IMG/VR virus record: IMGVR_UViG_3300022074_000331
Coordinates: 1 to 26,165 of that record
DNA from: a virus
Length of the DNA: 26,165 bases
Strand: one strand, 5' to 3'
This document shows positions 6 through 26,165 of this stretch, one piece after another. Positions within the stretch are counted from its first letter, which is position 1. Every line of letters starts with the position of its first letter. The notes beneath the pieces were generated by a model, which was not told the DNA's origin, did no database searches, and saw only the letters and a list, made by a program, of their open reading frames with translations. The translations under genes and the position numbers were made by a program.

Positions 6-398
6 ATGGCTAGTATATTAAGAGTAAACACATTAACAGATGCAAGTAGTAATAACTCTACTGCTATGAGTACCATCAATCAGGGTACAGTGAAGGCTTG
101 GGTGCTATTAACTGGAACAGGAACACATACCACTAGAGATAGTTTCAATCATTCAAGTTTGACTGATGGTGGAGTAGGTCGTTATCAAAATAATATTTCT
201 TCTGCTATGGGCAATGATGATTATGTAGTTCACGCAACTGGTGACATTGGAACTGTTGGTGGTTTTGCAGTTGCTTGTACTAATGATTCTAGTATTGCTA
301 GAACAACTACATTGGCAGCAATGAGAATAGGCACTACAGGGGGTGCATCATCAGACACAAGTATTGCAGCAATGAGTTTTATTGGAGACCTAGCATGA
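6..398 (+). CDS. Tail fibre-associated protein (small, repetitive Thr/Ser/Gly-rich)
   Basis: A 130-residue protein that starts with MASILRVNTLTDASSNNSTA, an opening I recognise from small tail-fibre-region proteins of marine phages. The rest is rich in Thr, Ser, Gly and Asn with short beta-prone segments, as expected for an exposed beta structure on the virion. There is no signal peptide and no membrane segment. Its stop overlaps the start of the next gene by four bases (ATGA), so the two are probably translationally coupled and work together. The window begins five bases before the start codon, so no ribosome binding site can be judged and a longer N-terminus cannot be fully excluded. A host-recognition or fibre accessory role is inference from context. 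Confidence 0.7.
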   Translation: MASILRVNTLTDASSNNSTAMSTINQGTVKAWVLLTGTGTHTTRDSFNHSSLTDGGVGRYQNNISSAMGNDDYVVHATGDIGTVGGFAVACTNDSSIARTTTLAAMRIGTTGGASSDTSIAAMSFIGDLA

Positions 399-3669: not shown

Positions 3670-3878
3670 TGTTTAAATGTCTCGTTATAGCATGTCTGAT
3701 AAGTAACCCAAGTTACTGTCAGGTATTGGAGAACACAGAGTATCCAGTTGTATATGAGACTTATGATGAATGTAAAGACAGAGCAATGGAGATAGCATCA
3801 CAGATTCCAATATTTCTAAGAGGATACAGAGCAACCAAGTGGAAATGTAAAGAAGTTCAGGAAGGAAAATTTTTATGA
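3669..3878 (+). CDS. Small exported protein with signal peptide
   Basis: A 69-residue protein that begins with a typical signal peptide: MFKCLVIACLISNPSYCQV, with a basic residue, a hydrophobic core and a small-residue cleavage region. The Cys-17 context (PSYC-Q) is not a clear lipobox. The mature part has two further cysteines (DECKDRA, KWKCKEV) that could form one disulfide. The start overlaps the upstream stop, so translation is coupled to the preceding membrane protein, and the two may act together in the periplasm. Function unknown; a spanin-like partner is one possibility. Confidence 0.65.
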   Translation: MFKCLVIACLISNPSYCQVLENTEYPVVYETYDECKDRAMEIASQIPIFLRGYRATKWKCKEVQEGKFL

Positions 3879-7672: not shown

Positions 7673-7972
7673 TCATCTGCTCTCTAATCTATCTATCAGT
7701 CTTGTTAAATACCACTGAGCCTTTTTAAGATCTTCAGTACCACCCTTATGTCTCCATCTATGGACATACTTCTTAATGTTTCCCTCTACATAAAAAGCAA
7801 ATCCTTCTTTGCCTAAACTATCTTCTAGATAATCTATGCATTCAATCTCCCCCTCTTTATAGTGAGGGGGATGATTTACCATTTCAGTTTTAACTTCGGC
7901 TTCCTTTGCTCTTCTTCTCATGTAGTCATGATGACTCTCAAAAGGAAACTCTAGTTGCTCTTCATCAGACAC
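7673..7972 (-). CDS. DUF3310-like protein (phage nucleotide-metabolism accessory)
   Basis: About 99 residues. The C-terminal 65 residues carry the DUF3310 pattern: VNHPPHYKEGEIECIDYLED, FYVEGNIKKYVHRWRHKGGT and EDLKKAQWYLTRLIDRL. Proteins with this domain are frequent beside phage DNA-synthesis genes; a link to nucleotide kinases has been proposed but is not proven. The start is uncertain: GTG at 7972 has a strong GGAGG eight bases upstream, ATG at 7990 and ATG at 8032 are alternatives. The start overlaps the end of the RNR gene, so translation is coupled to it. Confidence 0.8.
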   Translation of the reverse strand: MSDEEQLEFPFESHHDYMRRRAKEAEVKTEMVNHPPHYKEGEIECIDYLEDSLGKEGFAFYVEGNIKKYVHRWRHKGGTEDLKKAQWYLTRLIDRLESR

Positions 7973-9659
7973 CGCATGAACCTCCATGTCCTGTGATGTC
8001 GCATATGTCGTGTGTTTCAAGTGACTCTTCAAATTCCTCTCCTAAGTTTTTACGAGCTTCTTTATATGGAACAGAAATAAGAGGTTGACCTCCTCTACTT
8101 CCGTCAGGGTAACAGGTGAAACCTCTCAGACGATGAGCATACTTCGCTAATGTCTGGGCAAAAGGTTTGACTGTGTCTTCATTATTTAACTCAGATCCCC
8201 AAGCAGGTAAGTTGATGGTACTAGATATGGACATATCAACGTAGTCTTGCACATCTGCTTGAAACTCCATTCTTCTCTCATACGCACTAGACAGATCAAG
8301 AGCACTCTCTATTGTGTCTGGGTCTGTGCCATAACGATCAATCACTTCTTGGGCTGCACTATCAACGACCATCTGATACATCCATTTCTTTCCGTCTTTG
8401 AGATATCTTCTCTTATATGCAACGGCAAATAATGGCTCTACACCTGTAGTTGTAGAAGCCAAGATTCCAATTGAACCTGTTGGTGCAATCGCTCTTACCT
8501 TTACAGGTCTACTAATACCTAGAGCATCTGCACTTTGTTTAGCTACTTTATCTGATACTGACTTGTAGATGTATAACCAACGATGCATCTCGTCTGTTAC
8601 TTTATATGGTTGCTTTCTTTGTAGTAACCATTCATGCATACCCATAAGACCTAGTCCAAGTCTTCTATTCTTTTCACGGACTTTGTAAACTCTGTCATAA
8701 GGCAGTTCTGCTTTCACTGTACCACAGACTAAAAACTTTGTAGCCAGTTCAGTGCACTGAGCAAAGTCTTTAATGTCTTCTATTCTAGACATGTTAAGTG
8801 AACCAAGATTACAGACATCACTATCGTCTTCTGATGTCACTTCAGTACATGCGTTCCTGAGTGTTTCGTTTTCATTCTCAAAAAAGTTAAATGAAAATCC
8901 AGGTTCTGCTGAAGATAAAGCCTGTTTAGTATTCTTATACCAAAGCTCTGGTAGTTCGCCTGTCTTCCAATAGTCTTCTATAAATTTAGTATCCCAATTG
9001 AGTGAGATGTTTGTCATGTCTAGTGGACAGGCAAAATTAAAGTCTGCTTCTTTTAAGTCTGCCATTGTCTTGTCTGTTCCTGCGACAGGCATACTCTTCC
9101 AATCTTTAGCATGTAAGAATGCTTCAGCATCTGCATGTTGCCAATTCAATGAGGCATAAATAGCAGAACGTCTGCTACCACCTTGCATAACTTGTCTACC
9201 TATTTCATTAACGGCTAACATAAGACTGATAGGACCACTAGCTTCCCCACCTGTTCTTGATAACAAAGAACCTTTGGCACGAAACTTAGAATAATCTATA
9301 CCAATACCACCACCACTTGAGAGACAGGACATTGCTCTATTTGCTAGGTTACCCCACTCTTCTCTTGTGTCTTCTTCGCCTCTTAGTAAATAACAGTTGT
9401 TAAAGAACTTAGCTTTTCTTCCTGCATAATATAAGTATCTACCCCCAGGGATAAATCTCATTGTACTGATCATAAATTTTAATTGATTAATGTCAGACTG
9501 TGGTAACAAACCACCACATACATCTTCTACTAATGTGTTAGACAATTCATCCCATGTCTCAGCACCCTCATGTTTATACTTTAAATTAAATATACTCTCA
9601 GCAAAACTGTTACGAAAAATATTCTGGTTATCGGTATACATCTTCTTCATTTCATTCAT
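7965..9659 (-). CDS. nrdJ: Class II (adenosylcobalamin-dependent) ribonucleotide reductase
   Basis: A 564-residue single-chain ribonucleotide reductase that converts ribonucleotides into deoxyribonucleotides for phage DNA synthesis. Visible residues: Cys89 (KFFNNCYLLRG) and Cys283 (DVCNLGSLNMSR) as the redox pair, Cys271 and Glu273 in NACTE as the radical Cys and its acid partner (N-x-C-x-E), the 'SSGGGIGIDYSKFRAKGS' and 'APTGSIGILASTTTGVEP' blocks, and a C-terminal Cys pair (553 and 562). No small subunit gene (NrdB) or glycyl-radical motif is present in the window, which agrees with class II. The start at 9659 is preferred because AGGA lies eight bases upstream and it begins just after the PolA stop; longer versions would run into PolA. 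The Cys of the thiyl motif sits in NACTE where NPCGE is more usual. Confidence 0.92.
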   Translation of the reverse strand: MNEMKKMYTDNQNIFRNSFAESIFNLKYKHEGAETWDELSNTLVEDVCGGLLPQSDINQLKFMISTMRFIPGGRYLYYAGRKAKFFNNCYLLRGEEDTREEWGNLANRAMSCLSSGGGIGIDYSKFRAKGSLLSRTGGEASGPISLMLAVNEIGRQVMQGGSRRSAIYASLNWQHADAEAFLHAKDWKSMPVAGTDKTMADLKEADFNFACPLDMTNISLNWDTKFIEDYWKTGELPELWYKNTKQALSSAEPGFSFNFFENENETLRNACTEVTSEDDSDVCNLGSLNMSRIEDIKDFAQCTELATKFLVCGTVKAELPYDRVYKVREKNRRLGLGLMGMHEWLLQRKQPYKVTDEMHRWLYIYKSVSDKVAKQSADALGISRPVKVRAIAPTGSIGILASTTTGVEPLFAVAYKRRYLKDGKKWMYQMVVDSAAQEVIDRYGTDPDTIESALDLSSAYERRMEFQADVQDYVDMSISSTINLPAWGSELNNEDTVKPFAQTLAKYAHRLRGFTCYPDGSRGGQPLISVPYKEARKNLGEEFEESLETHDICDITGHGGSCGV

Positions 9660-9672
9660 AATTATTCCTATC

Positions 9673-11814
9673 TTATTTTGCCTCGCCCCAAGTCTTGCCA
9701 ATACCGCCTTCAACAAGTCCTGTTTGAGGTATGTTTTCAAACAATTTAGTAGCCGACCAGATCATGGTCTTGATCATTATGTCTTTCGCTTGGGTGGCAA
9801 ACTCGTCTGGAACTTCTGCTATTAGTTCATCGTGTACAACGTGTACTAATTTTGCAGGTATATTGCCCCAGATTTTGGGAAACCTACTCAAACACAACAA
9901 CATTATTTCTGCGGCTCCGCCTTGACATGGGGTATTAATTGACTTCGTGAACAATTGATTTGATCTTAAAGGAGCATAAACCCTACCCTGTGGTGTCCAT
10001 AAATAACCTGTGTTGTCTGATAGTTTTCTTGTTTGTGTGATCCACTCCTTTAGTCCAACATAAAGATCCAGAACCTCGTGCTGAATCCTACTCGCTTCAT
10101 GTAACGTGGTTGGGTGCCCATTAGTTGTCAGCACTTGTGACAATCCTCTAGGTCCCTGACCAAATAAAAGTCCAAAAATACAAGCCTTTGCCGCTTGTCT
10201 CATCCACTTACCAGACCCTGTTTTAAAGTGATCATCATTGCAATCAGCGGGATAGTCCCCTTTGAAACAATGTCTTGCGGTTAGTGTGTGGATGTCTAGA
10301 CCGTCTTCAATGGCTCCCAACAGAACTTTATCGTTTGACAAAGCAGCGGGAACACGAACTTCTATTTGACCATAATCACAGACCACCAGACTATGGCGGT
10401 CTTTACTTTTAAATAGATGTCTGAATTCTTCAGTTGCATTTATAGTTTGTAATGCAGGTTCTGTGACACTAAACCTGCCTGTCTCTGTGCCACCAATTCT
10501 AAAGTTTGCATGAATCCTTTCAGACATTGGATTTATAAACCTGTTAAAGTCTGTACCCAATGTTGAATTGTTTTTCTTAGCATCTGCCCACTCAGCAATC
10601 GCAAGTAGTGGCGGATGATACTCAGTTGGTAGTTGAGATATATTCTCTAGTAAATCAATCTTACCACATTTAAGTTGACCTGTATCTGTCTTGACCCAAT
10701 TGTCAGTTGTATAAGGTGGGTATTTATTAAGATGAAACCTAATCCAATTTGCAACTTGTATTGTTGAGGCGGGATTATCTACAACAGGGGCACCTTCACT
10801 CGAATGATTTTTAAACATCTCAAGTGCTTTCTGTCTGCCGTCTGTGTCTTTATTATTTAAATCTTCTGCTAAATCCTCATGAGCATTTCTATCAAAGCCA
10901 ATACCATTAACCATAACTTCATTCACGGCTCTGATACTTGACCTTAGTAAATCATATATCCATTCACATTGTTCTCTTGGAATCCTTTTACTTTCTTTTA
11001 TTAACTTCATCTGCTCAAAATGAAGATCCCAAGTAGCAACAACATCTCCTGCCGCATATCTTATTTGTTCATCATCTAATGGATCTTTAGACCAATCAGA
11101 TGCTTGTTGTGTCTTACTTGGTTCTTTACCTAAAACATCTGCACATCTATATGCTAAACCTTTTCTTATTTGTGTAAGACTAACTAATGCTTGTGCCTGT
11201 AACAAAGTACAATGAGGATGCCTTGCGGGTGTGATCCCGTGTTGTGTTAACATCTTCACATCAAATTGTGCATTGTGTGCTAACCATATGACTTTGTCAG
11301 AATTTAAAACTTTGTCTCCAAGTTCTTGTAAGACAGGCATAGACACATGCCATCTATCTATGACGTGGACTTCTTCCCCACTGTAGATTTGGAGCAATCT
11401 AACTTGACCTGTATATACGTTGAGTCCCGCTCTTTTGACGTGCTTGGCTTGAGCATTGAGGTCAGACCTACACTCCGCCATATCTTGTTGGGTTTCCTTG
11501 CGAACTTTCTTTTGATCTTCTGTACATTTAGAGAGGATCGGAAACGAGTGAAATTTCTCAGAGACATCTACAAACTCCTTTTGTTTATCCTCATATATTT
11601 TAATAAGGCTTTGATCAGCAGTTGTTTCAACGTCAACTGAAAGCAGAAGTGGGTTGTCCCAACTATGATTTAAATCAATTAACTTCGCATAATACTTAGT
11701 GAGTTTTTTTACACCTGTATCATCAGTAATAAAATTCAGTTTCACTCCAGACATAAAATCATGGAATGGGGTAGGAGTTTGACCCCCACCCAATACCGAT
11801 TTCATATCATCCAC
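9673..11814 (-). CDS. polA: Family A DNA polymerase with 3'-5' exonuclease
   Basis: A 713-residue replicative polymerase. Exonuclease motifs: Asp61/Glu63 (SVDVETTA), Asp185 (AHNAQFDVK), and Tyr253/Asp257 (YAAGDVVATWD). Polymerase motif A at 480-484 (DYGQIE), motif B Arg539-Lys543-Phe547 (RQAAKACIFGLLFGQG) and motif C at 661-663 (VHDE). There is no N-terminal 5' nuclease domain. Phe547 corresponds to E. coli position 762, the residue linked to polymerase speed and fidelity. An insert of about 65 charged residues splits the first exonuclease motif from the next strand (VRLLQIYSG, near 138). It lies in one leftward operon: its start overlaps the stop of 11814-12485, and the RNR follows 13 bases after its stop. 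Confidence 0.95.
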   Translation of the reverse strand: MDDMKSVLGGGQTPTPFHDFMSGVKLNFITDDTGVKKLTKYYAKLIDLNHSWDNPLLLSVDVETTADQSLIKIYEDKQKEFVDVSEKFHSFPILSKCTEDQKKVRKETQQDMAECRSDLNAQAKHVKRAGLNVYTGQVRLLQIYSGEEVHVIDRWHVSMPVLQELGDKVLNSDKVIWLAHNAQFDVKMLTQHGITPARHPHCTLLQAQALVSLTQIRKGLAYRCADVLGKEPSKTQQASDWSKDPLDDEQIRYAAGDVVATWDLHFEQMKLIKESKRIPREQCEWIYDLLRSSIRAVNEVMVNGIGFDRNAHEDLAEDLNNKDTDGRQKALEMFKNHSSEGAPVVDNPASTIQVANWIRFHLNKYPPYTTDNWVKTDTGQLKCGKIDLLENISQLPTEYHPPLLAIAEWADAKKNNSTLGTDFNRFINPMSERIHANFRIGGTETGRFSVTEPALQTINATEEFRHLFKSKDRHSLVVCDYGQIEVRVPAALSNDKVLLGAIEDGLDIHTLTARHCFKGDYPADCNDDHFKTGSGKWMRQAAKACIFGLLFGQGPRGLSQVLTTNGHPTTLHEASRIQHEVLDLYVGLKEWITQTRKLSDNTGYLWTPQGRVYAPLRSNQLFTKSINTPCQGGAAEIMLLCLSRFPKIWGNIPAKLVHVVHDELIAEVPDEFATQAKDIMIKTMIWSATKLFENIPQTGLVEGGIGKTWGEAK

Positions 11815-12529: not shown

Positions 12530-13606
12530 CTAAGTACGGTAAGTAATCGAAAGACGTGGTGAATAATCTCCTTGAGTTTGGAAATCACGATGGTCCAACC
12601 CCGCCTCTTTGAATTTACTTATATCGTACCTCATTGGTGCCTTTTGTGAGTACATAGACACCGATCCCCAATCAGCAGAAATCTTTTTACTATCTGCCTC
12701 TTTAAGAATTTCTTTAATATCCTGTTCTAATTGTTTTACTTCTCTAGTCTTTGCCTTGGCTTCATTGTTAAGTTTGTGTCTGGCTAAAACTTTCTCGTGT
12801 AATCTTTCTGTAATTGCTGCCGAAAAATTTGATCCCTCGGCACTAGGAATACTAGACACCTCTTTGTCTAGACATAATAATTTAAATGGACAGTAGTCAC
12901 ATTCTTTACCACCTTCTATTTTTCCTTCTGGCTCTGGTAAATTTTCAAGATTATATTTTGTGAATACAGATGTGGCTCTACCTCTTAAACCAAGAGCAAC
13001 CATCTCATCGAATGGGATAACCCATGATTTAATTTGATTTACAAAACTTGCATTTATATATGTGATCACTGCATGTGTTGGAAAATAGTCTGTAGTACGT
13101 CTTACTAGATCCATACCTTGTTGCACTTGCATTCTATGTTGAAACTTAGGTTCTCTTAAATGTTCAAAGGCTCTTGGATCAATTGACTTTAATTCATTGT
13201 ATAAACACTTAGTGTATTTCTTTGTTCCATCTTCTTGCTCTATTTCAAAAACTTCTTTAGCTACAAACAGTCCATCGGGTGTTGCACTTTGATAAGTTGT
13301 TATATCAACTAATGTCTGTTGTCCCTCATCAGTTGCCCATATTAATTCAACGTCACTACCTTTCAGACTTTGTTGCATGGATGGTACTGCCCAATCCTCA
13401 ACCATATTACCACGTTCGGCGGCTCCTAAATCTTGTACAAAGTTACTGTCCTCGGGAGCATTATGTTTATCAAATACAATCGCTCTGATACAACCACCTA
13501 TTGCAGATGCACCGACAGTCTTCTTTCTGTCATGCCCACCCCAGGTTTTAGCATCAGAGTTCTTGCTGATATTATTAAGTATTAAGTTGTTAGTATTTAA
13601 GATCAT
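12530..13606 (-). CDS. PD-(D/E)XK nuclease, Cas4/RecB-like with cluster cysteines
   Basis: A 358-residue protein. The nuclease core is visible as Glu70 (GNMVEDW), Asp111 (SATPDGLF), Glu138-x-Lys140 (YNELKS) and Gln160 (RMQVQQ). One cysteine near the N-terminus (Cys39, SAIGGCIRA) and three near 236-245 (KECDYCPFKLLCLD) match the arrangement of a 4Fe-4S cluster in Cas4 and AddB-type nucleases. The C-terminal 100 residues are a long charged helix (around 270-305) and a short beta region. It probably processes DNA ends in phage recombination or replication. It is transcribed with the downstream DNA polymerase genes, 45 bases apart. Confidence 0.85.
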   Translation of the reverse strand: MILNTNNLILNNISKNSDAKTWGGHDRKKTVGASAIGGCIRAIVFDKHNAPEDSNFVQDLGAAERGNMVEDWAVPSMQQSLKGSDVELIWATDEGQQTLVDITTYQSATPDGLFVAKEVFEIEQEDGTKKYTKCLYNELKSIDPRAFEHLREPKFQHRMQVQQGMDLVRRTTDYFPTHAVITYINASFVNQIKSWVIPFDEMVALGLRGRATSVFTKYNLENLPEPEGKIEGGKECDYCPFKLLCLDKEVSSIPSAEGSNFSAAITERLHEKVLARHKLNNEAKAKTREVKQLEQDIKEILKEADSKKISADWGSVSMYSQKAPMRYDISKFKEAGLDHRDFQTQGDYSPRLSITYRT

Positions 13607-15987: not shown

Positions 15988-16872
15988 ATGAACAACGAGC
16001 TAATAGTTGAGTTCTTGAAAACTATTTACAAAAATAAAACATCTGGAGTCCTAAGTTTTGAGACACAGGAAAAAGGTAGAGAGATGTTTAGATCCGACAG
16101 TCTCACTCAGCTACTAGAATGGATCTATAAGATGGAACAAGATAAAAGAGGTGCACATCTAAGACAGGCAAGTATGGATGGTGATAGTAAAAAATGCACC
16201 AGAGCAGACGTTGTCGCTATTAATCACTTATGGATAGACATAGACACAGGTGTTATTCCAAAGATATTAATTGATGATAAAGATTTAAGACCAACCTTTT
16301 GTATTAATTCTGGCAGAGGCATCCACTTATATTGGAGACTAGCCAAGCCTGTAGATAATCTCATTGGCATTTCTCAATGTGAAAAGATTATGAGAAAACT
16401 TGCAGACATACTTGGTGCTGATCCCGCCCCTACTCACTCAGCTTCAACACTTAGAATTCCAGGGACAATAAATTTTAAATATGACCCACCTGTACAGACA
16501 GAAAAAGTGAAAGCAATTTGGTGTGACACATCTAAGAATTACGAACTGGCAGACTTTGAAAAGTTTATTGAGAAGAACATAGATCCATACGAACAATTGA
16601 TAGATAACATTACCGAGGGTATGGGCATATCAAAGTCTGCATCTGATTGGCAAAGAATAATTGATAACTTGTCGGTGAAAGGCTCAGACAATGAGTTTGG
16701 TGGCAGACACAACTGTGTCACAAAATTAGCGGGTTATTGGACAAGACAGTCTGTAAACCCAGAAGTACAACTTAGAACATTAGTCCAATATGGTTGCACC
16801 TTGAATGAATGGGAATGCAGAAACATTATTAATTGGGCATGGGAGAAACACGAAAATGACATTAGCACCTAA
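15988..16872 (+). CDS. AEP-type DNA primase (RepB/PriCT-like)
   Basis: A 294-residue archaeo-eukaryotic-type primase. The metal-binding hhhDhD motif is LWIDID (Asp84, Asp86); the second motif is SGRGIH (Ser108 to His113); the third is the Arg in STLRIPGTINFKY (Arg156). The region after 200 (IDNLSVKGSDNEFGGRHNCV, then a Cys/Trp-rich helix ENRNIINWAW-like end) resembles the helical PriCT domain that links primase to helicase. It would make primers for phage replication. The 3' end overlaps the SF3 helicase gene by 17 bases; in many phages and plasmids both activities are one polypeptide. GAGAGGAA precedes the ATG. Confidence 0.85.
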   Translation: MNNELIVEFLKTIYKNKTSGVLSFETQEKGREMFRSDSLTQLLEWIYKMEQDKRGAHLRQASMDGDSKKCTRADVVAINHLWIDIDTGVIPKILIDDKDLRPTFCINSGRGIHLYWRLAKPVDNLIGISQCEKIMRKLADILGADPAPTHSASTLRIPGTINFKYDPPVQTEKVKAIWCDTSKNYELADFEKFIEKNIDPYEQLIDNITEGMGISKSASDWQRIIDNLSVKGSDNEFGGRHNCVTKLAGYWTRQSVNPEVQLRTLVQYGCTLNEWECRNIINWAWEKHENDIST

Positions 16873-18367
16873 TCCCGCTGACCCAACTACACATATATTA
16901 CAACAGGTACAAACTGCACAGGCTCGGGGTACTCGACCGAACATACGAGACATTCTCGGACATTGTATTGATGCATTGATTATTAGGTTCAGACAGAATG
17001 GGTCTGACATTTTGCACAATAACGATATGTTTTTTCGTTACGCAGCGAAGGAAGGCATCTGGAAAGTAGCAGACATTGTAGACATAAAGACTGACATAGA
17101 CGAATGGTTTCGCTCTGCAATCAATCTGGTACCAACAAAACAATTTAGGTCCGAAGTTCTGGAAGGCTTGATGATGAGAGTTCACATGGCTGAAGTACCG
17201 TGGGGTAATGTCAGAAACATTATCATATGTAAGAACTTGATAGCTTACGACTTGGATAAAGGTCAGACTGTGACGGTCAAGAAAGAATGGTATCTCAGAG
17301 AAGAGAACTTATTGAATGTTGATTGGGTTAGTGGCGGAGCATGTCCTGTCTGGGACACGGCAATGCAAAAACTATTTTCACACTTCACTGATCCAGTAGA
17401 AAGATCTGAAGTTATCCAATTAGTAGAAGAATGGATGGGTACTACATTATACAGACATAATAGACCTCGTGCATTATCCAAGTGTCTATTCCTATATGGA
17501 GAAAGACGAACTGGTAAATCAACAATACTTGATGTACCACGTCAGATCTTTGGAGAAAAATTAGCAACTGCAATAGACCTACAAGAACTAAGTGGGTTTG
17601 GTGCAGAGGCTCTAATGAATAAAGCGGTATGGCTTTCTGATGAGATTAAGGTAGGAACAGTCATGAATGATAGTGTTATTAAACGTGTCATTACAAACGA
17701 ACCGCTTTCCATAAAGATTAAATTTGAAAAACCTTTTGAGGGCAGACTTAATTTAACAGTCGGTCTTGCGGGAAACTCTTTACCTAAGATTGATGATACC
17801 TCTGATGCAGTATATGACAGGATGATATTTGTCCCGATGGATACTGTGATTGGAGCATCAGCAGAAAATCAAAAGTTAAAAGATGAGCTAGAGAAGGAGC
17901 TTCCTGCGATCTTGAGTAAGATGGTAGACAGACTTGCAGACATAAGGAAACGTGGGCAGTATCAGATTCCATCGTGTCTGATTTCCAAGCAGGAAGAAAT
18001 AAAACTAGAACAAGATCCCCTCCGTGGATTTCTTGATGAAGCAATTACTTCAGCTAATAATTTATGTGCCATAAAAAATGGAGACATTGTGTCTGCATAT
18101 CGTGGTTACTTATTAAAACAATTCGGAAGTGATCAGGCTAAGAACTCAAAAATTTCAGCAGTCTGGTTATCAAGACGAATCTCAGAGGCTTTTCCAAACT
18201 CAACTGTGGGCAGAGTTGATCAGGGAACAGTCCGAGCAAGGTTTGGTTTACACTTTTCAGACAAGGGAAAAGCATGGTTGTCTGCGGGGTGGGGTCTGGA
18301 GGACACCTTTTATAAACCTGACCAGAAAAGACTTAAAGAAGCAAACATAAATACAGGAGTTAAATAG
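16856..18367 (+). CDS. Superfamily 3 helicase (D5/P4-type)
   Basis: A 503-residue replicative helicase of the phage P4 alpha/poxvirus D5 kind. Walker A is GERRTGKST (215-223), Walker B AVWLSDE (257-263), motif C is Asn307 in VGLAGNSLPKIDD, and the arginine finger is Arg322 in VYDRMIF. The N-terminal 170 residues are a D5_N-like domain, and the last 120 include a winged-helix region (WLSRRISEAFPNSTVGRVDQ). The start at 16856 is preferred because GGGAGA lies ten bases before it; a further in-frame ATG at 16805 lies well inside the primase gene. It works as a ring on single-stranded DNA with the primase encoded upstream, usually loaded at an origin by an initiator. Confidence 0.9.
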   Translation: MTLAPNPADPTTHILQQVQTAQARGTRPNIRDILGHCIDALIIRFRQNGSDILHNNDMFFRYAAKEGIWKVADIVDIKTDIDEWFRSAINLVPTKQFRSEVLEGLMMRVHMAEVPWGNVRNIIICKNLIAYDLDKGQTVTVKKEWYLREENLLNVDWVSGGACPVWDTAMQKLFSHFTDPVERSEVIQLVEEWMGTTLYRHNRPRALSKCLFLYGERRTGKSTILDVPRQIFGEKLATAIDLQELSGFGAEALMNKAVWLSDEIKVGTVMNDSVIKRVITNEPLSIKIKFEKPFEGRLNLTVGLAGNSLPKIDDTSDAVYDRMIFVPMDTVIGASAENQKLKDELEKELPAILSKMVDRLADIRKRGQYQIPSCLISKQEEIKLEQDPLRGFLDEAITSANNLCAIKNGDIVSAYRGYLLKQFGSDQAKNSKISAVWLSRRISEAFPNSTVGRVDQGTVRARFGLHFSDKGKAWLSAGWGLEDTFYKPDQKRLKEANINTGVK

Positions 18368-18547
18368 ATGCCCCGCCCTAATACAATTGGAGAACCAACA
18401 ACAATCTACAATGCATTATTAAAGAAGACACAATTAGAAAAATTACAATTCATTGCACATCAAGAACGTAAAAAGGGTAAGACACATATATCCGCCGCAA
18501 GTATAATTAGGGATGCCATTGACAAGTGGTTACAAGAGAATGTCTGA
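18368..18547 (+). CDS. Small ribbon-helix-helix-like protein
   Basis: A 59-residue basic protein: MPRPNTIGEPTTIYNALLKK, then TQLEKLQFIAHQERKKGKTH and ISAASIIRDAIDKWLQENV. The order short strand (TTIYNALL), helix, Gly-Lys turn, and helix beginning with S-A-A-S-I-I-R-x-A-I-x-x-W-L is that of an Arc/CopG-type DNA-binding fold, which binds operators as a dimer. The gene begins directly after the helicase stop (TAG ATG) and overlaps the next gene. It could control the primase-helicase operon or plasmid-like copy number. It was found only by reading the gap after the helicase. Confidence 0.6.
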   Translation: MPRPNTIGEPTTIYNALLKKTQLEKLQFIAHQERKKGKTHISAASIIRDAIDKWLQENV

Positions 18548-19102: not shown

Positions 19103-19690
19103 TTAAGTTTCTTTATGATTAGCATGTGATATATCGCCACTCATCAAGACTTCAAAATTCCTCAAGGCTTGGAAACATCTGCCTGTAGTATTTTTTGAAA
19201 AGGATTTTATATACTTGAGATAATCCGCACATGATTCATATAACTTTTCGTTGCCCATAAAAGTAGTTGTACTGCTTGATCTTTCAACTGTTAACCAACC
19301 CTCGGCTTCACATTCTTTGACAGTCTGACTTATTGTTTTCCTGTCAGCATTCATTTCAGTTGATAATTGGCTGATAGTATATGGAATATTAACCATATAT
19401 GCATAACAAATAAATTTGGCAAATGCATTTCTGAATGGTGTTGAATTAAAGTATCTTTGAATAGGTGTATTCATACGAGACGTTCTTGTTTTATACATCT
19501 CCATCTCAGTCAAAAGAATAGCAAGATTATATTCTCTTTCTAAATGCTCTCTTAAAGAATCTGCTACACCTTTTTGGTCATCAATTTTTTTAACCTTATC
19601 GATGCCTTGGAATTCAAAATCTTTATAGTTTGGATACCTTTGTTTATTGTTAAAATGTAAAACTTTCTTATTATTATTATTATTATTCAT
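19103..19690 (-). CDS. Winged-helix DNA-binding protein (candidate replication initiator or regulator)
   Basis: A 195-residue protein. The N-terminus is a poly-Asn run encoded by six AAT/AAC-type codons, then a basic stretch. A predicted helical region covers 45-85, and a winged helix covers about 87-147: FAKFICYAYMVNIPYTISQL, TEMNADRKTISQTVKECEAE and GWLTVERSSS, with TISQTVKECEAE as the likely recognition helix. The C-terminal 45 residues are helical and basic. AAGGAG lies before the ATG, and a near-consensus promoter stands at 19722-19750. The gene adjoins the TTACTGTCA repeat array, as initiator genes adjoin iterons in plasmids and phages. No Rep family domain is recognised, so a MarR-like regulator is an equal alternative. 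Confidence 0.65.
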   Translation of the reverse strand: MNNNNNNKKVLHFNNKQRYPNYKDFEFQGIDKVKKIDDQKGVADSLREHLEREYNLAILLTEMEMYKTRTSRMNTPIQRYFNSTPFRNAFAKFICYAYMVNIPYTISQLSTEMNADRKTISQTVKECEAEGWLTVERSSSTTTFMGNEKLYESCADYLKYIKSFSKNTTGRCFQALRNFEVLMSGDISHANHKET

Positions 19691-19721
19691 TGAGTCTCTC
19701 CTTATCTGTCAATATTACAAG

Positions 19722-19750
19722 ATTATAATCTCCTTTCAATCAATTGACAA
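19722..19750 (-). promoter_or_regulatory. Near-consensus leftward promoter of the winged-helix gene
   Basis: Leftward TTGTCA (19750-19745), exactly 17 bases, then TATAAT (19727-19722). Transcription should start about 19715, at the edge of the TTGACAGATA leader element (19712-19703) that precedes AAGGAG and the ATG at 19690. This is the best sigma-70-like promoter in the window. Confidence 0.7.
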
Positions 19751-19790
19751 TACTTATTTCTGCATATTTTAAATTAATTAACAAGTTATT

Positions 19791-20104
19791 TAATGACAGT
19801 AAGATAATTTTACTGTCATTATTTTTGATTTTACTGTCAGTAAATCAGACTTTGGGGTGGTTTGGTTGAGGTTTTTTCACTTGGAATACTAGATTAATGA
19901 CAGTAAACGGGTTTTTACTGTCATTAATTTGTTTTACTGTCAGTAAAAGCGGGAGAGATAAGTGTCTGTTTTAACGGGATAATTTGGATTTTACTGACAG
20001 TAATGACAGTAAAGTACAGTAAATATATAAACAGGTAGTAATATATAAATATAATTATTAGTTATTAGTTACAGTTTTACTGTACTTTACTGTCATTACT
20101 GTCA
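19791..20104. repeat. Array of TTACTGTCA/TGACAGTAA sites (candidate iterons or operators)
   Basis: The 9-mer TTACTGTCA or its complement occurs ten times exactly: 19794, 19810, 19831, 19898, 19915, 19934, 19995, 20004, 20087 and 20096 (start positions). Some copies are paired into inverted repeats: 12-bp arms at 19791-19802/19810-19821, 15-bp arms at 19893-19907/19914-19928. TTTACTGTCAGTAAA occurs twice (19830-19844 and 19933-19947). Variant TACAGTAAA sites lie at 20015 and 20076 (inverted), and TTACTGACA at about 20267. The 19691-20296 gap has no ORF worth calling. Confidence 0.85.
19995..20104. repeat. Perfect 29-bp inverted repeat around a 52-base AT-rich spacer (candidate origin)
   Basis: Left arm 19995-20023, right arm 20076-20104, each carrying two whole TGACAGTAA sites and one TACAGTAAA variant, exact reverse complements over 29 bases. 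The spacer (20024-20075) is almost only A and T with a single CAGG and ACAG. The structure could extrude as a cruciform or give a very stable RNA hairpin; AT-rich DNA between initiator sites is typical of a DNA-unwinding element. Confidence 0.75.
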
Positions 20105-20296
20105 TGGATTTACAAAGTCTGAAAGTTTGATGTGTATCCATTTGTACCTGCACGGGTGTATTTGTGTAGGAATATAAGTAGTAGACACAGACACAGTAAC
20201 AGACTATGTTGGTGTCTATAGTAATTAATAAAAACTTTTTATGCTGGTTCGCTGCGACACAAATTTTACTGACAACACTTGGAATAGTAGACATAA

Positions 20297-20758
20297 ATGG
20301 GAACACTAGTTGGTGTAGATATAGGAACTCTTTGTGGGGTTGCTTGGAAAAAAGATTCAGTCATTAGACATATTCAATTTGATACATCTAAAGCTAGAAT
20401 TAGTGGGGGCGGGATGAGACCTCTAATGCTAAGAAGACATTTAATAGAATTATTTAGTGAGATTGAACCTATTGAGGAACTAGGTTTTGAATTAGTCCAA
20501 AGACATAGTGGTACATATGCGGGTCAAATATATGGGGAATTGAGAGGTGTCTTGATGTGTGTCTGTGAAGAGATGTCTATACCTTATAGATCTATTGGTG
20601 TCACAACTATCAAGAAACATCTTACAGGAAATGGCATAGCTTCAAAAGATGTAGTCAGACAGGCAATCGTTGAGAAGTATCCCAAGCTAGACCCTCAGAC
20701 AGAAGACGAGGCTGATGCAATTAGTATTTTACAATGTGTTATAGATGGAGTTTTTTAA
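20297..20758 (+). CDS. RuvC-like Holliday junction resolvase
   Basis: A 153-residue RNase H-fold endonuclease that resolves branched DNA during replication and packaging. The acidic residues are Asp8 (LVGVDIGTLCGVAW), Glu65 (GFELVQRHSG) and the pair Glu138/Asp140 (EDEADAISI). The 'RHSGTYAGQIYGELRGVL' and 'GVTTIKKHLTGNGIASKDVV' blocks are typical of the phage branch of this family. The start codon lacks a good ribosome binding site. Rightward transcription begins somewhere in the repeat region to the left, so expression may depend on whatever binds there; a TTACTGACA variant lies 22 bases before the start. Confidence 0.85.
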   Translation: MGTLVGVDIGTLCGVAWKKDSVIRHIQFDTSKARISGGGMRPLMLRRHLIELFSEIEPIEELGFELVQRHSGTYAGQIYGELRGVLMCVCEEMSIPYRSIGVTTIKKHLTGNGIASKDVVRQAIVEKYPKLDPQTEDEADAISILQCVIDGVF

Positions 20759-23246: not shown

Positions 23247-23652
23247 AAATCTTCTCCCTGTTCTCTGCCTGTGCAGTTAAGTTAAGAATAATAATGTTTT
23301 GATTTGTTTTAGGATCATGCTCATAAGTTAAAGCAATGATATCTCCTACCTTGGATTTCTTCTTGATAGATTGGATACTAAATCTTTTATCCCCTCTAGC
23401 TTTAGTCTTGTAGAAGTTGATCTTAGTTGGAGTATCAGATCCATTGAACCTAAAGACTGCTGACAAAGTCTGCTTGTCTCCATTCTTCATGGTCTTGTAG
23501 TTGATACCATATAAAGATGCGAACCTCTCGAATACACCACCATCGATATTGTTTTTATCCCACATGGTATAAGTTAGTTTTAAGTGTGGGAATTGTGGAT
23601 CAAGAGACTGAACCACATTAGTTTCTATTTCTGAATAGTTTTGCTTATTCAT
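23239..23652 (-). CDS. Stand-alone EcoRII-N/B3-like pseudobarrel protein (tentative)
   Basis: A 137-residue protein. Its C-terminal half reads TKINFYKTKARGDKRFSIQS, then IKKKSKVGDIIALTYEHD and IIILNLTAQ. The pattern 'T-I-FYK---RGD-RF-I--L----K-GDI--L' resembles the DNA-binding pseudobarrel (EcoRII N-terminal/B3-like) domain found in restriction enzymes and plant factors. No nuclease motif follows, so it would be the DNA-binding part alone. The start at 23652 has AAGGAAAG in front; the longer version starts inside the preceding gene. A role in sensing or masking modified sites would be possible. The domain call is a by-eye resemblance and may be wrong. Confidence 0.5.
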   Translation of the reverse strand: MNKQNYSEIETNVVQSLDPQFPHLKLTYTMWDKNNIDGGVFERFASLYGINYKTMKNGDKQTLSAVFRFNGSDTPTKINFYKTKARGDKRFSIQSIKKKSKVGDIIALTYEHDPKTNQNIIILNLTAQAENREKIYG

Positions 23653-24094
23653 TTTCTTTCCTTTCATAAAGTAAATATGATTTTAAGTTTTGTAGAATTG
23701 TATCGATCGCAGATATACTGCGAACACTTGGAATTCTAGACGGTAAATCCTCTTCCAAACTGACAGGTGTACCTGTTGATATGGATAAGGCTCTGATCCT
23801 CATTGAGACTTTTAATCTAAGATAGTCTGAAATACCTTTAGGTATATTTGTTCTACCGTTTAACCAATTTCTTACAACTTGGTCATTGACCTTGAACAAT
23901 CCACAGAGTTCTTTACTGGACATATCCAAAGCTAAAAGACAGACACGCAATTGATCAGACGTAATTGTTGTCTGTGTCTGTCTAATATCTTCAATTGGAA
24001 ATGCTTTGGTGTTACCTGCGTGAGTGGATTTTTTAGAAAATCTTTTCCTTAAAAGTTCATCGGGAACAGATGGAATTTTATTTTCTGTTTCCAT
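23645..24094 (-). CDS. HTH transcriptional regulator, XRE-like
   Basis: A 149-residue protein. Residues 55-107 form an XRE-type helix-turn-helix: SDQLRVCLLALDMSSKELCG, LFKVNDQVVRNWLNGRTNIP and KGISDYLRLKV. The N-terminal 50 residues are polar and basic, and the C-terminal 40 helical. ATG at 24094 has GGTGGAG in front and lies inside the end of the previous gene. Its position in the leftward early operon suggests control of early phage or host genes. It lacks a recognisable protease (LexA-like) domain. Confidence 0.7.
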   Translation of the reverse strand: METENKIPSVPDELLRKRFSKKSTHAGNTKAFPIEDIRQTQTTITSDQLRVCLLALDMSSKELCGLFKVNDQVVRNWLNGRTNIPKGISDYLRLKVSMRIRALSISTGTPVSLEEDLPSRIPSVRSISAIDTILQNLKSYLLYERKENE

Positions 24095-24302
24095 TGCTCC
24101 ACCTCTTAAAGGCAATCTCATTCTCAATGATAATGATAGGCAAGAAACATCCTACTAATATAAAGATAGATGCAATTGCCCACATTAACCAATCGCTTGG
24201 AGTTGATAATGCTATGTTGGTTTCAACCAGATCCAGAATTAAAAATCCAAATAAGAAATAAATTGCAGACATAATAATTAAAAATATTTTTGTCTTAGGC
24301 AT
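24078..24302 (-). CDS. Small two-helix membrane protein
   Basis: A 74-residue protein with two hydrophobic segments (about 5-24, KIFLIIMSAIYFLFGFLILD, and 39-60, LMWAIASIFILVGCFLPIII) and a basic C-terminus (FKRWSNGNRK). GGAGGTG lies six bases before the ATG. The hairpin-like topology suits superinfection-exclusion or holin-like proteins, but there is no further evidence. It overlaps the genes on both sides. Confidence 0.65.
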   Translation of the reverse strand: MPKTKIFLIIMSAIYFLFGFLILDLVETNIALSTPSDWLMWAIASIFILVGCFLPIIIIENEIAFKRWSNGNRK

Positions 24303-25016: not shown

Positions 25017-26165
25017 TTATTTTAGAATTTTGTTAAGTTCCTTAAGACCATTTGTGATCATGGTTTTAGCTGAACTTTCTACAATGTAGTGATCAAAGCA
25101 TCCATCAAAAGATTTGATGAACTGATCTTCCGCTCTTTTCCAACTTGGATCAACATCACTATAAAGTTTGTAATGTGTTAAGACCATGCCAATAACCTCA
25201 ATGCCCCACTTTGAAACAATCTCTTTAGCTTGTCTGCATTTTTCCACAGAGTTAGGAGTTCCATCAGTCACTATGATCATGACCTTTCGATCTTCTGATC
25301 TCTTAGCTAACCTTAGACCCTCACTCATCATGGCATCATGGGTGGGAGTACCACCATCAGACTTACCATGTTGGTATGCCACAAAGTGTTTAGATTTCAT
25401 CCAATGCTGATCATGATCTTTTAGGATGTAATAATCTTTATCATAACTACTTTTACCTGTGGCACAAAATAGAGGTGAATTTGAAAAGTTAGCACTAGGA
25501 AAACAACCCACAGAATATTTAACTTGAACTTTATGTAAGGCATTACCTAGAACTAAAGCTAAATTGATACTCTCTTGAGAATTGTTAATTAGATGCCTAC
25601 CAATTTTGCGAGATTTCATCGATGATGATGTATCAATCAATAAAGATACCGCAGTTTTAGTACCCGCTTGTTTCCAAGGCTGATGAAATATATTAGGTGT
25701 ATTAGTACATAATTTACCTAATTTTCTAGCATCAAGTTTGCCCCTGTCTCTATTTCTTTTAGAGCCATAACGATCGGGATTTTTTAGAATTCTAGCCAAA
25801 GTTTGAGAACAGTCAGACACATTTAATTTAGATACAATGTTACTAACTTTCTTAGCTTTAGTTTGAACCTTTTGATCTAGGTCTTCATCAGAACTATCAA
25901 CCATTTGCTCAGTCTCATAGCTTTTAGCCTTTAGAGGTTTATCATCAAGATCAACCTTTTTATTAGGATCATTATCAACATCATCCCTTAAAAAATCTTC
26001 TTTATTCTTAAATTCTTGATTACTCAAATCTATAGACATAGAACTTTCTGCATCATCTGATCCCTGTCTATCCATATCAACAGTATTTTGAGATGGTTTA
26101 GAATTTTCAGAACTATCAGCATCATCAGAACTATCAGCATCATCAGAACTATCAGCATCATCAGA
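25017..26165 (-). CDS. cobT-like: CobT-like VWA-domain protein, N-terminus beyond window
   Basis: An open frame continues past the window end, so this is a partial gene with at least 382 residues. The end nearest the window border is an acidic, Ser/Asp-rich linker, followed by a charged region and then the C-terminal VWA domain: GKLDARKLGKLC, TAVSLLIDTSSSM (MIDAS DxSxS), the SDGGTPTHDAM loop (MIDAS Thr) and VMIIVTDGTPNS (MIDAS Asp). The 'G-LDARKL' block and acidic linker before a VWA are those of CobT, the cobaltochelatase subunit, whose phage relatives usually pair with a CobS-like AAA+ ATPase. The partner would lie beyond the window. It may act as a chaperone or remodelling factor and not in B12 synthesis. 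Confidence 0.8.
   Translation of the reverse strand, partial: SDDADSSDDADSSDDADSSENSKPSQNTVDMDRQGSDDAESSMSIDLSNQEFKNKEDFLRDDVDNDPNKKVDLDDKPLKAKSYETEQMVDSSDEDLDQKVQTKAKKVSNIVSKLNVSDCSQTLARILKNPDRYGSKRNRDRGKLDARKLGKLCTNTPNIFHQPWKQAGTKTAVSLLIDTSSSMKSRKIGRHLINNSQESINLALVLGNALHKVQVKYSVGCFPSANFSNSPLFCATGKSSYDKDYYILKDHDQHWMKSKHFVAYQHGKSDGGTPTHDAMMSEGLRLAKRSEDRKVMIIVTDGTPNSVEKCRQAKEIVSKWGIEVIGMVLTHYKLYSDVDPSWKRAEDQFIKSFDGCFDHYIVESSAKTMITNGLKELNKILK
26112..26165 (-). repeat. In-frame 18-bp tandem repeat in the acidic linker
   Basis: ACTATCAGCATCATCAGA occurs three times without mismatch (26112-26129, 26130-26147, 26148-26165) and reaches the window edge, so more copies may follow. Leftward it encodes SDDADS repeats. 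It lies within the CobT-like reading frame, so copy number changes would lengthen or shorten the linker without a frameshift. Confidence 0.8.

What the first reader, a model, noticed from the sequence alone, without database searches (positions are those of the whole stretch)
19791..20104. Dense array of TTACTGTCA sites in a 600-bp gene-free gap: candidate phage origin or master operator
Ten exact copies of a 9-mer, in both orientations and in paired inverted forms of 12 and 15 bp, within 311 bases is far above chance. The array lies between divergent genes for a winged-helix protein and a RuvC-like resolvase, close to the primase-helicase operon. Arrays like this are iterons of replication origins or multi-site operators. 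I do not know this repeat from any described phage.
Basis: partly seen in the sequence, partly recalled or inferred. Interest (0 to 1): 0.78.

Follow-up and report, generated by a model that had tools for sequence, protein, structure and literature searches.

The report
Phage replication origin with iteron array
The dense repeat array in an uncultured phage is real and conserved, and it most likely marks the place where the phage starts copying its DNA, using the origin layout known from bacterial satellite islands, here enlarged and moved away from its helicase gene.

Summary
Ten exact TTACTGTCA copies lie in 19794-20104 and one elsewhere (3713). About 0.4 are expected in the whole window, and no random sequence put two within 311 bp. 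Nine IMG/VR relatives keep 7-10 copies at the same spacings; a tenth is cut off by its contig end.

The core is a perfect 29-bp inverted repeat (19995-20023 / 20076-20104), three tandem units per arm, around a 12%-GC segment. Two related inverted/palindromic modules lie to its left.

This is the anatomy of the origins of phage-inducible islands and of the deposited rep_origin of Lactobacillus phage A2. The window's helicase (16805-18367) is P4-family (TIGR01613, above cutoff). Among 15 distant homologues in named phages and satellites, seven have a mixed-orientation short-repeat array just 3' of the helicase gene that beats every other window of the same locus. Each has its own word and, where mapped, an AT-rich gap between the sets.

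Best reading: a replication origin opened by the phage's own helicase. The winged-helix protein is unlikely to be the essential binder: it is 41-43% identical between relatives with identical sites, and absent from relative L011's fragment. New variant of a known kind. Binding and replication are untested.

The parts
19790..20122 (.). Whole conserved non-coding element: putative replication origin with iteron array
   Evidence: Invariant columns among 8 clade members: 91% in exact units, 63% in the rest of 19790-20122, 18% and 32% in the flanks (on alignment)
19995..20023 (.). Left arm of core: three tandem units (TTACTGTCA at 19995, 20004; TTACTGTAC at 20014; all on -), 29-bp inverted repeat arm
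   Evidence: pairs perfectly with 20076-20104
20024..20075 (.). AT-rich spacer between the iteron sets, candidate unwinding element
   Evidence: Most AT-rich 50 bp of the gap is 20018-20067, 12% GC against 37% for the record
20076..20104 (.). Right arm of core: three tandem units on + (TTACTGTAC 20077, TTACTGTCA 20087 and 20096)
19790..19845 (.). Outer module 1: unit on -, unit on +, then palindromic TTACTGTCAGTAA
19894..19948 (.). Outer module 2: diverged duplicate of module 1, about 104 bp on
19989..20003 (.). Palindromic unit TTTTACTGACAGTAA joined to the left core arm
19845..19854 (+). TCAGACTTTG, conserved second motif, inverted partner at 20113-20122
   Evidence: partner lost in L011
20113..20122 (-). 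Inverted partner of TCAGACTTTG at the right edge of the element
16805..18367 (+). P4-family helicase, proposed initiator that binds the iterons
   Evidence: TIGR01613 127.5 bits, cutoff 108.7; 92-95% identical in clade; only PDB match 7ola, E 5.6e-10; hhalign prob. 99.7 to helicases with adjacent arrays, through residue 465
15988..16872 (+). Primase subunit, overlaps the helicase gene
   Evidence: PHROG 10514 DNA primase, E 6e-12; weak RepB_primase
18368..18547 (+). 59-aa small protein directly after the helicase; ribbon-helix-helix-like by eye, possible accessory binder
   Evidence: 90-97% identical; no family or PDB match; low-confidence model
19103..19690 (-).
   Evidence: Weak MarR-type matches; absent from the L011 fragment
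19722..19750 (-). Sigma-70-like promoter of the winged-helix gene, TTGTCA-17-TATAAT, 44 bp from the nearest unit
   Evidence: 11 of 12 consensus positions
20297..20758 (+). RuvC-like resolvase
   Evidence: PHROG 159, E 5e-17

Best explanation
The array is the phage's origin of replication. The P4-family helicase encoded at 16805-18367, working with the primase encoded just before it, binds the 9-bp units, probably through its C-terminal part. It assembles as two oppositely oriented oligomers on the inverted iteron sets at 19995-20023 and 20076-20104, melts the AT-rich segment between them, loads itself, and starts bidirectional copying by the phage's own PolA-type polymerase. The two extra modules on the left (19790-19948) add binding sites that could help loading or limit firing. 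Shown here: array, anatomy, conservation, helicase family, and the repeated association of such arrays with homologous helicases. Inferred: binding, melting, loading, and the role of the extra modules.
For: (1) Anatomy: inverted tandem iteron sets flank the most AT-rich segment of the gap. (2) Conservation: units and spacing are kept in 9 relatives; a tenth is cut off by its contig end. Exact units are 91% invariant against 18-32% in flanks. (3) The helicase is above the TIGR01613 cutoff, and its only PDB match is the primase 7ola. (4) Distant homologues: in L063, L066, L067, L071, L072, L074 and L076 the 450 bp just after the helicase gene hold a mixed-orientation 9-mer array that beats every other window of that locus (34-103 control windows each). 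L068 ties with one window. The same holds for the window's gap (12 sites against at most 5 in 109 control windows). L066 is the weak one: 2 of 40 shuffles of that sequence reached its count. (5) In the seven mapped positives (L063, L067, L068, L071, L072, L074, L076) the most AT-rich 50 bp lies between or overlaps the edge of the inner sets. (6) Phage A2's array lies inside a deposited rep_origin. (7) Related helicases have related units: R24.1 GTGACGGAT and CR28 GTGATGGAT/GTGACGGAT; distant ones have unrelated units. [quoted passage not shown] SaPI Rep recognises iterons by its C-terminal domain, and the C-terminal domain of the related Cch2 binds its repeats (PMC7581432).
Against: The array is 1.43 kb from the helicase gene here (0.64 kb in L011), not directly after it. 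Several homologues (L064, L069, L070, L075, L077 and the IMG/VR contig L040) show no adjacent array at all, and L065 and L073 are equivocal, so such a helicase does not always come with one. The helicase model is too poor (pLDDT 36) to show a DNA-binding C-terminal domain, and the hhalign match stops at residue 465 of 520. No binding or replication data exist. The record is a fragment, so an initiator or ori elsewhere cannot be excluded.
Confidence: 0.77

Rival explanations
1. Multi-site operator: the winged-helix protein (19103-19690) or the XRE-like protein (23645-24127) binds the array and controls the divergent winged-helix and resolvase genes.
For: The array lies between divergent genes; a strong promoter-like site of the winged-helix gene is 44 bp away. 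The recognition-helix region ADRKTIS is conserved among winged-helix homologues. The 23645-24127 protein has weak repressor-family matches.
Against: No unit overlaps the predicted promoter. There are no unit clusters at other promoters. The winged-helix gene is absent from the L011 fragment, which keeps 9 units. An operator does not need inverted tandem sets around a 12%-GC core, and would not explain arrays after homologous helicases in unrelated phages.
Confidence: 0.11
2. Origin or copy-control site whose main binder is not the helicase but the 59-aa protein encoded directly after it, ribbon-helix-helix-like by eye; such dimers can bind arrays of short direct and inverted repeats about one helical turn apart.
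For: It is among the most conserved small proteins of the clade, 90-97%, in one operon with the helicase. Tandem unit spacing of 9-10 bp fits.
Against: No profile or PDB match. The structure model gives two helices at low confidence, without the expected strand. I did not look for this protein beside the other arrays.
Confidence: 0.07
3. Partition centromere (parS-like array) for a plasmid-like prophage state.
For: Arrays of short repeats in both orientations also occur at centromeres bound by ribbon-helix-helix proteins (established knowledge).
Against: No ParA-type ATPase turned up among the window proteins scanned (not every ORF was scanned). A tyrosine integrase suggests chromosomal lysogeny. 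The AT-rich core is unexplained.
Confidence: 0.03
4. Transcription terminators: the inverted pairs at 19791-19821 and 19890-19931 form hairpins followed by T runs.
For: Two terminator-like hits, 0.4 expected.
Against: Only 3 G-C pairs per stem; does not explain tandem same-strand units, the 29-bp inverted repeat or unit-level conservation.
Confidence: 0.02

Closest known systems
Origins of phage-inducible chromosomal islands (SaPI/PICI pri-rep-ori)
   Same: Two sets of short iterons flanking an AT-rich segment, and a self-loading helicase; SaPI5 Rep carries the same Primase_Cterm domain (PMC6092414, PMC7581432).
   Different: Not directly 3' of the helicase gene (1.43 kb away); two extra modules on one side only; carried by a phage with its own structural genes, PolA and ribonucleotide reductase; separate primase and helicase genes.
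Lactobacillus phage A2 rep_origin (AJ251789.2, 32208-32717) and the matching arrays of phages R24.1 and CR28
   Same: Homologous helicase; mixed-orientation iterons flanking an AT-rich gap; A2's stretch is a deposited origin.
   Different: Different iteron word (ACGGGAGGA, GTGACGGAT); array begins within about 10 bp of the helicase stop; fused primase-helicase; fewer units.
Array downstream of the helicase in Dinoroseobacter phage vB_DshS-R4C (L068)
   Same: Phage of a marine alphaproteobacterium; split primase and helicase; tandem AGGGAGGTA-type units flanking a low-GC gap.
   Different: GC-rich, fewer units, partly in a coding-dense region; ties with one other window of its locus.
Phage P4 ori/crr with alpha protein
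   Same: P4-family helicase as initiator, repeats at ori (PMC6092414, and general knowledge).
   Different: Not compared in sequence here; a second required site (crr) has not been sought.
Iteron plasmids (RepA, pi, TrfA type)
   Same: Clustered short repeats plus AT-rich DNA.
   Different: Inverted sets rather than head-to-tail; no DnaA boxes in the gap; no such Rep found among the proteins scanned.

Membership tests
[quoted passage not shown]
   29-bp inverted repeat arms around a 12%-GC core
PICI/SaPI-type origin | Located immediately 3' of the helicase/rep gene | tested here: not met
   1.43 kb downstream, with three small genes and the winged-helix gene between; 0.64 kb in L011
PICI/SaPI-type origin | Initiator is a helicase of the Primase_Cterm/D5 family (the SaPI5 branch; other SaPIs use a different helicase) | tested here: met
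   TIGR01613 127.5 bits, cutoff 108.7; 7ola E 5.6e-10
PICI/SaPI-type origin | Helicase C-terminal domain binds the iterons | not testable with these tools
   Needs a binding assay; model pLDDT 36
PICI/SaPI-type origin | Rep-ori segment drives autonomous replication | not testable with these tools
   Needs a plasmid assay
P4-family helicase (TIGR01613) | Score above the curated cutoff | tested here: met
DnaA/RepA-type iteron plasmid origin | DnaA boxes next to iterons, Rep_3/RepA-type initiator | tested here: not met
   No DnaA box in 19690-20300; no Rep_3 or RepA match among the window proteins scanned
Winged-helix multi-site operator | Array conserved only together with the regulator | tested here: not met
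   L011 keeps 9 units; no winged-helix gene in its 32-kb fragment
Winged-helix multi-site operator | Units overlap the regulated promoter | tested here: not met
   Nearest unit starts 44 bp upstream of the predicted -35 box
parABS-type centromere | ParA-type ATPase encoded nearby | tested here: inconclusive
   None among the proteins scanned, but not every ORF was scanned and the record is a fragment

The most novel reading that the evidence does not exclude
The PICI-type origin (iteron sets in inverted orientation around a melting core, read by a P4-family helicase) is not special to satellites, as has been stated, but is a general origin type of phages with this helicase. In this uncultured lineage it has grown an extra one-sided set of palindromic modules and moved away from the initiator gene, giving a built-in control element whose loading can be tuned separately from the core.
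Probability: 0.35. Interest if true: 0.6.

Novelty: new variant of a known kind. Interest (0 to 1): 0.47.

Why it matters
Replication origins of most environmental phages are unknown. This one can be read from sequence, and the rule used here (scan near the P4-family helicase gene for a mixed-orientation 8-9-mer array with an AT-rich middle) picked candidate origins in seven or eight of 15 distant homologues, including a deposited one. [quoted passage not shown] That makes it testable whether satellites took their replicon from phages or the reverse, and whether satellite and phage helicases cross-recognise origins.

Tried and rejected
Array as winged-helix operator: rejected as main reading. 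GC-skew switch as origin evidence: uninformative, skew follows coding strand. tRNA, structured RNA: none. Prophage copy in bacterial genomes: TTTACTGTNNTTTACTGTCA gave 20 hits in 84,980 species genomes, none with more than three 9-mers in the fetched stretch, taken as chance or unrelated. Array outside the clade: pattern scans of IMG/VR gave L041/L042 (chance, inside coding genes) and L087, L088, L090 (short same-strand repeats in other contexts). Intermediate relatives: L084/L085 share only one small protein (L085 also a distant polymerase) and no helicase of this family, so gradual co-change of iteron and helicase could not be followed inside the lineage. Helicase structure: pLDDT 36, unusable. 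59-aa protein as ribbon-helix-helix: not confirmed. No isolated phage is close to the window in DNA. I found no open paper describing the A2 origin experiment, so A2's status rests on the deposited feature.

Full report
OBSERVATION. The window (an IMG/VR record of 26,165 bp, a fragment) holds ten exact TTACTGTCA copies in 19794-20104 and one more at 3713. In Markov-1 sequences of the same composition the 9-mer occurs 0.36 times on average and never twice within 311 bp; the highest count of any 9-mer within 311 bp was 4, against 10 here. The array fills a 606-bp gap between divergent genes.

ANATOMY. The core is a perfect 29-bp inverted repeat, 19995-20023 and 20076-20104, with three tandem units per arm at 9-10 bp spacing (the innermost is TTACTGTAC). 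As single-stranded DNA it folds far better than shuffles (z -9.5). Between the arms lie 52 bp of AT-rich DNA; the most AT-rich 50 bp of the gap is 20018-20067 at 12% GC. To the left are two related modules, 19790-19845 and 19894-19948, each with a minus unit, a plus unit and the palindrome TTACTGTCAGTAA, plus a palindromic unit fused to the left arm. A second motif, TCAGACTTTG, stands in inverted orientation at 19845 and 20113.

CONSERVATION. Ten IMG/VR contigs encode a resolvase 91-96% identical. Nine carry the full array in the same place with 7-10 exact units at nearly the same spacings; the tenth, L015, is cut by its contig end. In an alignment of eight members, 91% of exact-unit columns and all TTACTGTAC columns are invariant, against 63% for the rest of 19790-20122 and 18% and 32% in the flanks. 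Outside the array the records have at most one exact unit each, so the 9-mer serves one locus, not a regulon.

WHICH PROTEIN. The gene order around the array is kept. The helicase is 92-95% identical across the clade, the 59-aa protein after it 90-97%, the winged-helix protein only 41-43% between the window and the others. In L011 the winged-helix gene is missing next to the array and undetectable in the 32-kb fragment, yet nine units remain. So it is unlikely to be the essential binder, although its recognition-helix region is conserved where present and a role in regulation is not excluded. The helicase passes the cutoff of TIGR01613 'phage/plasmid primase, P4 family'; its one PDB match is 7ola, E 5.6e-10, which I recall as the SaPI5 primase-helicase (the tool calls it only 'DNA primase').

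COMPARATIVE TEST. The helicase has distant homologues (about 20-28% identity) in 584 phage and satellite records. I fetched 14 of these hits plus one primase hit (L077) and asked whether the 450 bp after the homologous gene hold a short word in both orientations more often than other windows of the same locus. In L063 (PI-Sepi-HH2), L066 (P9), L067 (A2), L071 (Javan70), L072 (phiJH1301-3), L074 (CR28) and L076 (R24.1) the focal stretch beats every other window (34-103 each); L068 (Dinoroseobacter R4C) ties with one; L064, L069, L070, L075 and L077 have nothing; L065 and L073 are equivocal. An exact-8-mer scan gives nearly the same list, with L065 added and P9 weak. Shuffles of the focal stretch agree except that 2 of 40 reach the P9 count. 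The window's own gap scores 12 against at most 5 in 109 control windows. In the mapped positives the AT trough lies between or at the edge of the inner sets. A2's array lies within a deposited rep_origin. Helicases 52-68% identical to that of A2 have recognisably similar words (R24.1 GTGACGGAT, CR28 GTGATGGAT/GTGACGGAT), distant ones unrelated words. This is what is expected if each helicase reads its own iterons.

MECHANISM. From PMC6092414: PICI origins lie 3' of rep, always with two iteron sets flanking an AT-rich region. [quoted passage not shown] Carrying this over: the phage helicase binds the two inverted sets as opposed oligomers, melts the AT-rich core and loads itself. Binding, melting and loading are inference. 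The left modules could aid loading or restrain firing; this is a guess.

MEMBERSHIP AND NOVELTY. It works like a PICI/A2-type origin. It fails one stated feature of PICI origins, position directly after the helicase gene, and has an extra one-sided array, so I file it as a new variant, not a plain member. The record is not a PICI. [quoted passage not shown]

LIMITS. All evidence is sequence comparison. The record is a fragment; the helicase structure could not be modelled; no intermediate relatives were found to follow iteron and helicase changing together; the comparison set was a hand-picked 15 records, not a full survey of the 584.

Noticed in passing
window 19879-19893, 20277-20291, 23726-23740; 12842-12856 with one mismatch: ACTTGGAATNNTAGA occurs exactly three times, once inside the array and once just before the resolvase start codon (conserved there in all relatives aligned); function unknown, possibly a promoter or binding site.
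   Followed up: partly
window 19845-19854 and 20113-20122: TCAGACTTTG / CAAAGTCTGA inverted pair brackets most of the array; the right copy is degraded in L011.
   Followed up: partly
window 19853-19872: G-rich stretch on one strand only (GGGGTGGTTTGGTTGAGG), kept in similar form in all relatives aligned, between the two left modules; could be a strand-specific structure.
   Followed up: no
window 20180-20219: TAGACACAGACA...TGTTGGTGTCTA, a conserved inverted repeat between array and resolvase gene; partly lost in L009 and L010.
   Followed up: no
window 7965-9740 and 25017-26075: B12-dependent ribonucleotide reductase (TIGR02504, E 3e-64) and a CobT-like VWA protein in the same phage; the latter is about half the length of most of its homologues in relatives (657-693 aa).
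   Followed up: no
L011:14720-14978 and L012:17410-17503: Same-strand 8-mer repeats (AGATCCAT, TGTCTGAA) inside the CobT-like gene: rapidly varying coding repeats.
   Followed up: no
L087:2647-2705 and L090:9321-9358: Tandem same-strand TTACTGTCA-like units about 10 bp apart next to a small HTH-like gene, with terminase or portal-type genes nearby, in unrelated phage records: the same word in a different context.
   Followed up: partly
L068:13270-13436: Dinoroseobacter phage vB_DshS-R4C has a candidate origin array (AGGGAGGTA) after its primase/helicase gene; the record shows no annotation for it.
   Followed up: partly
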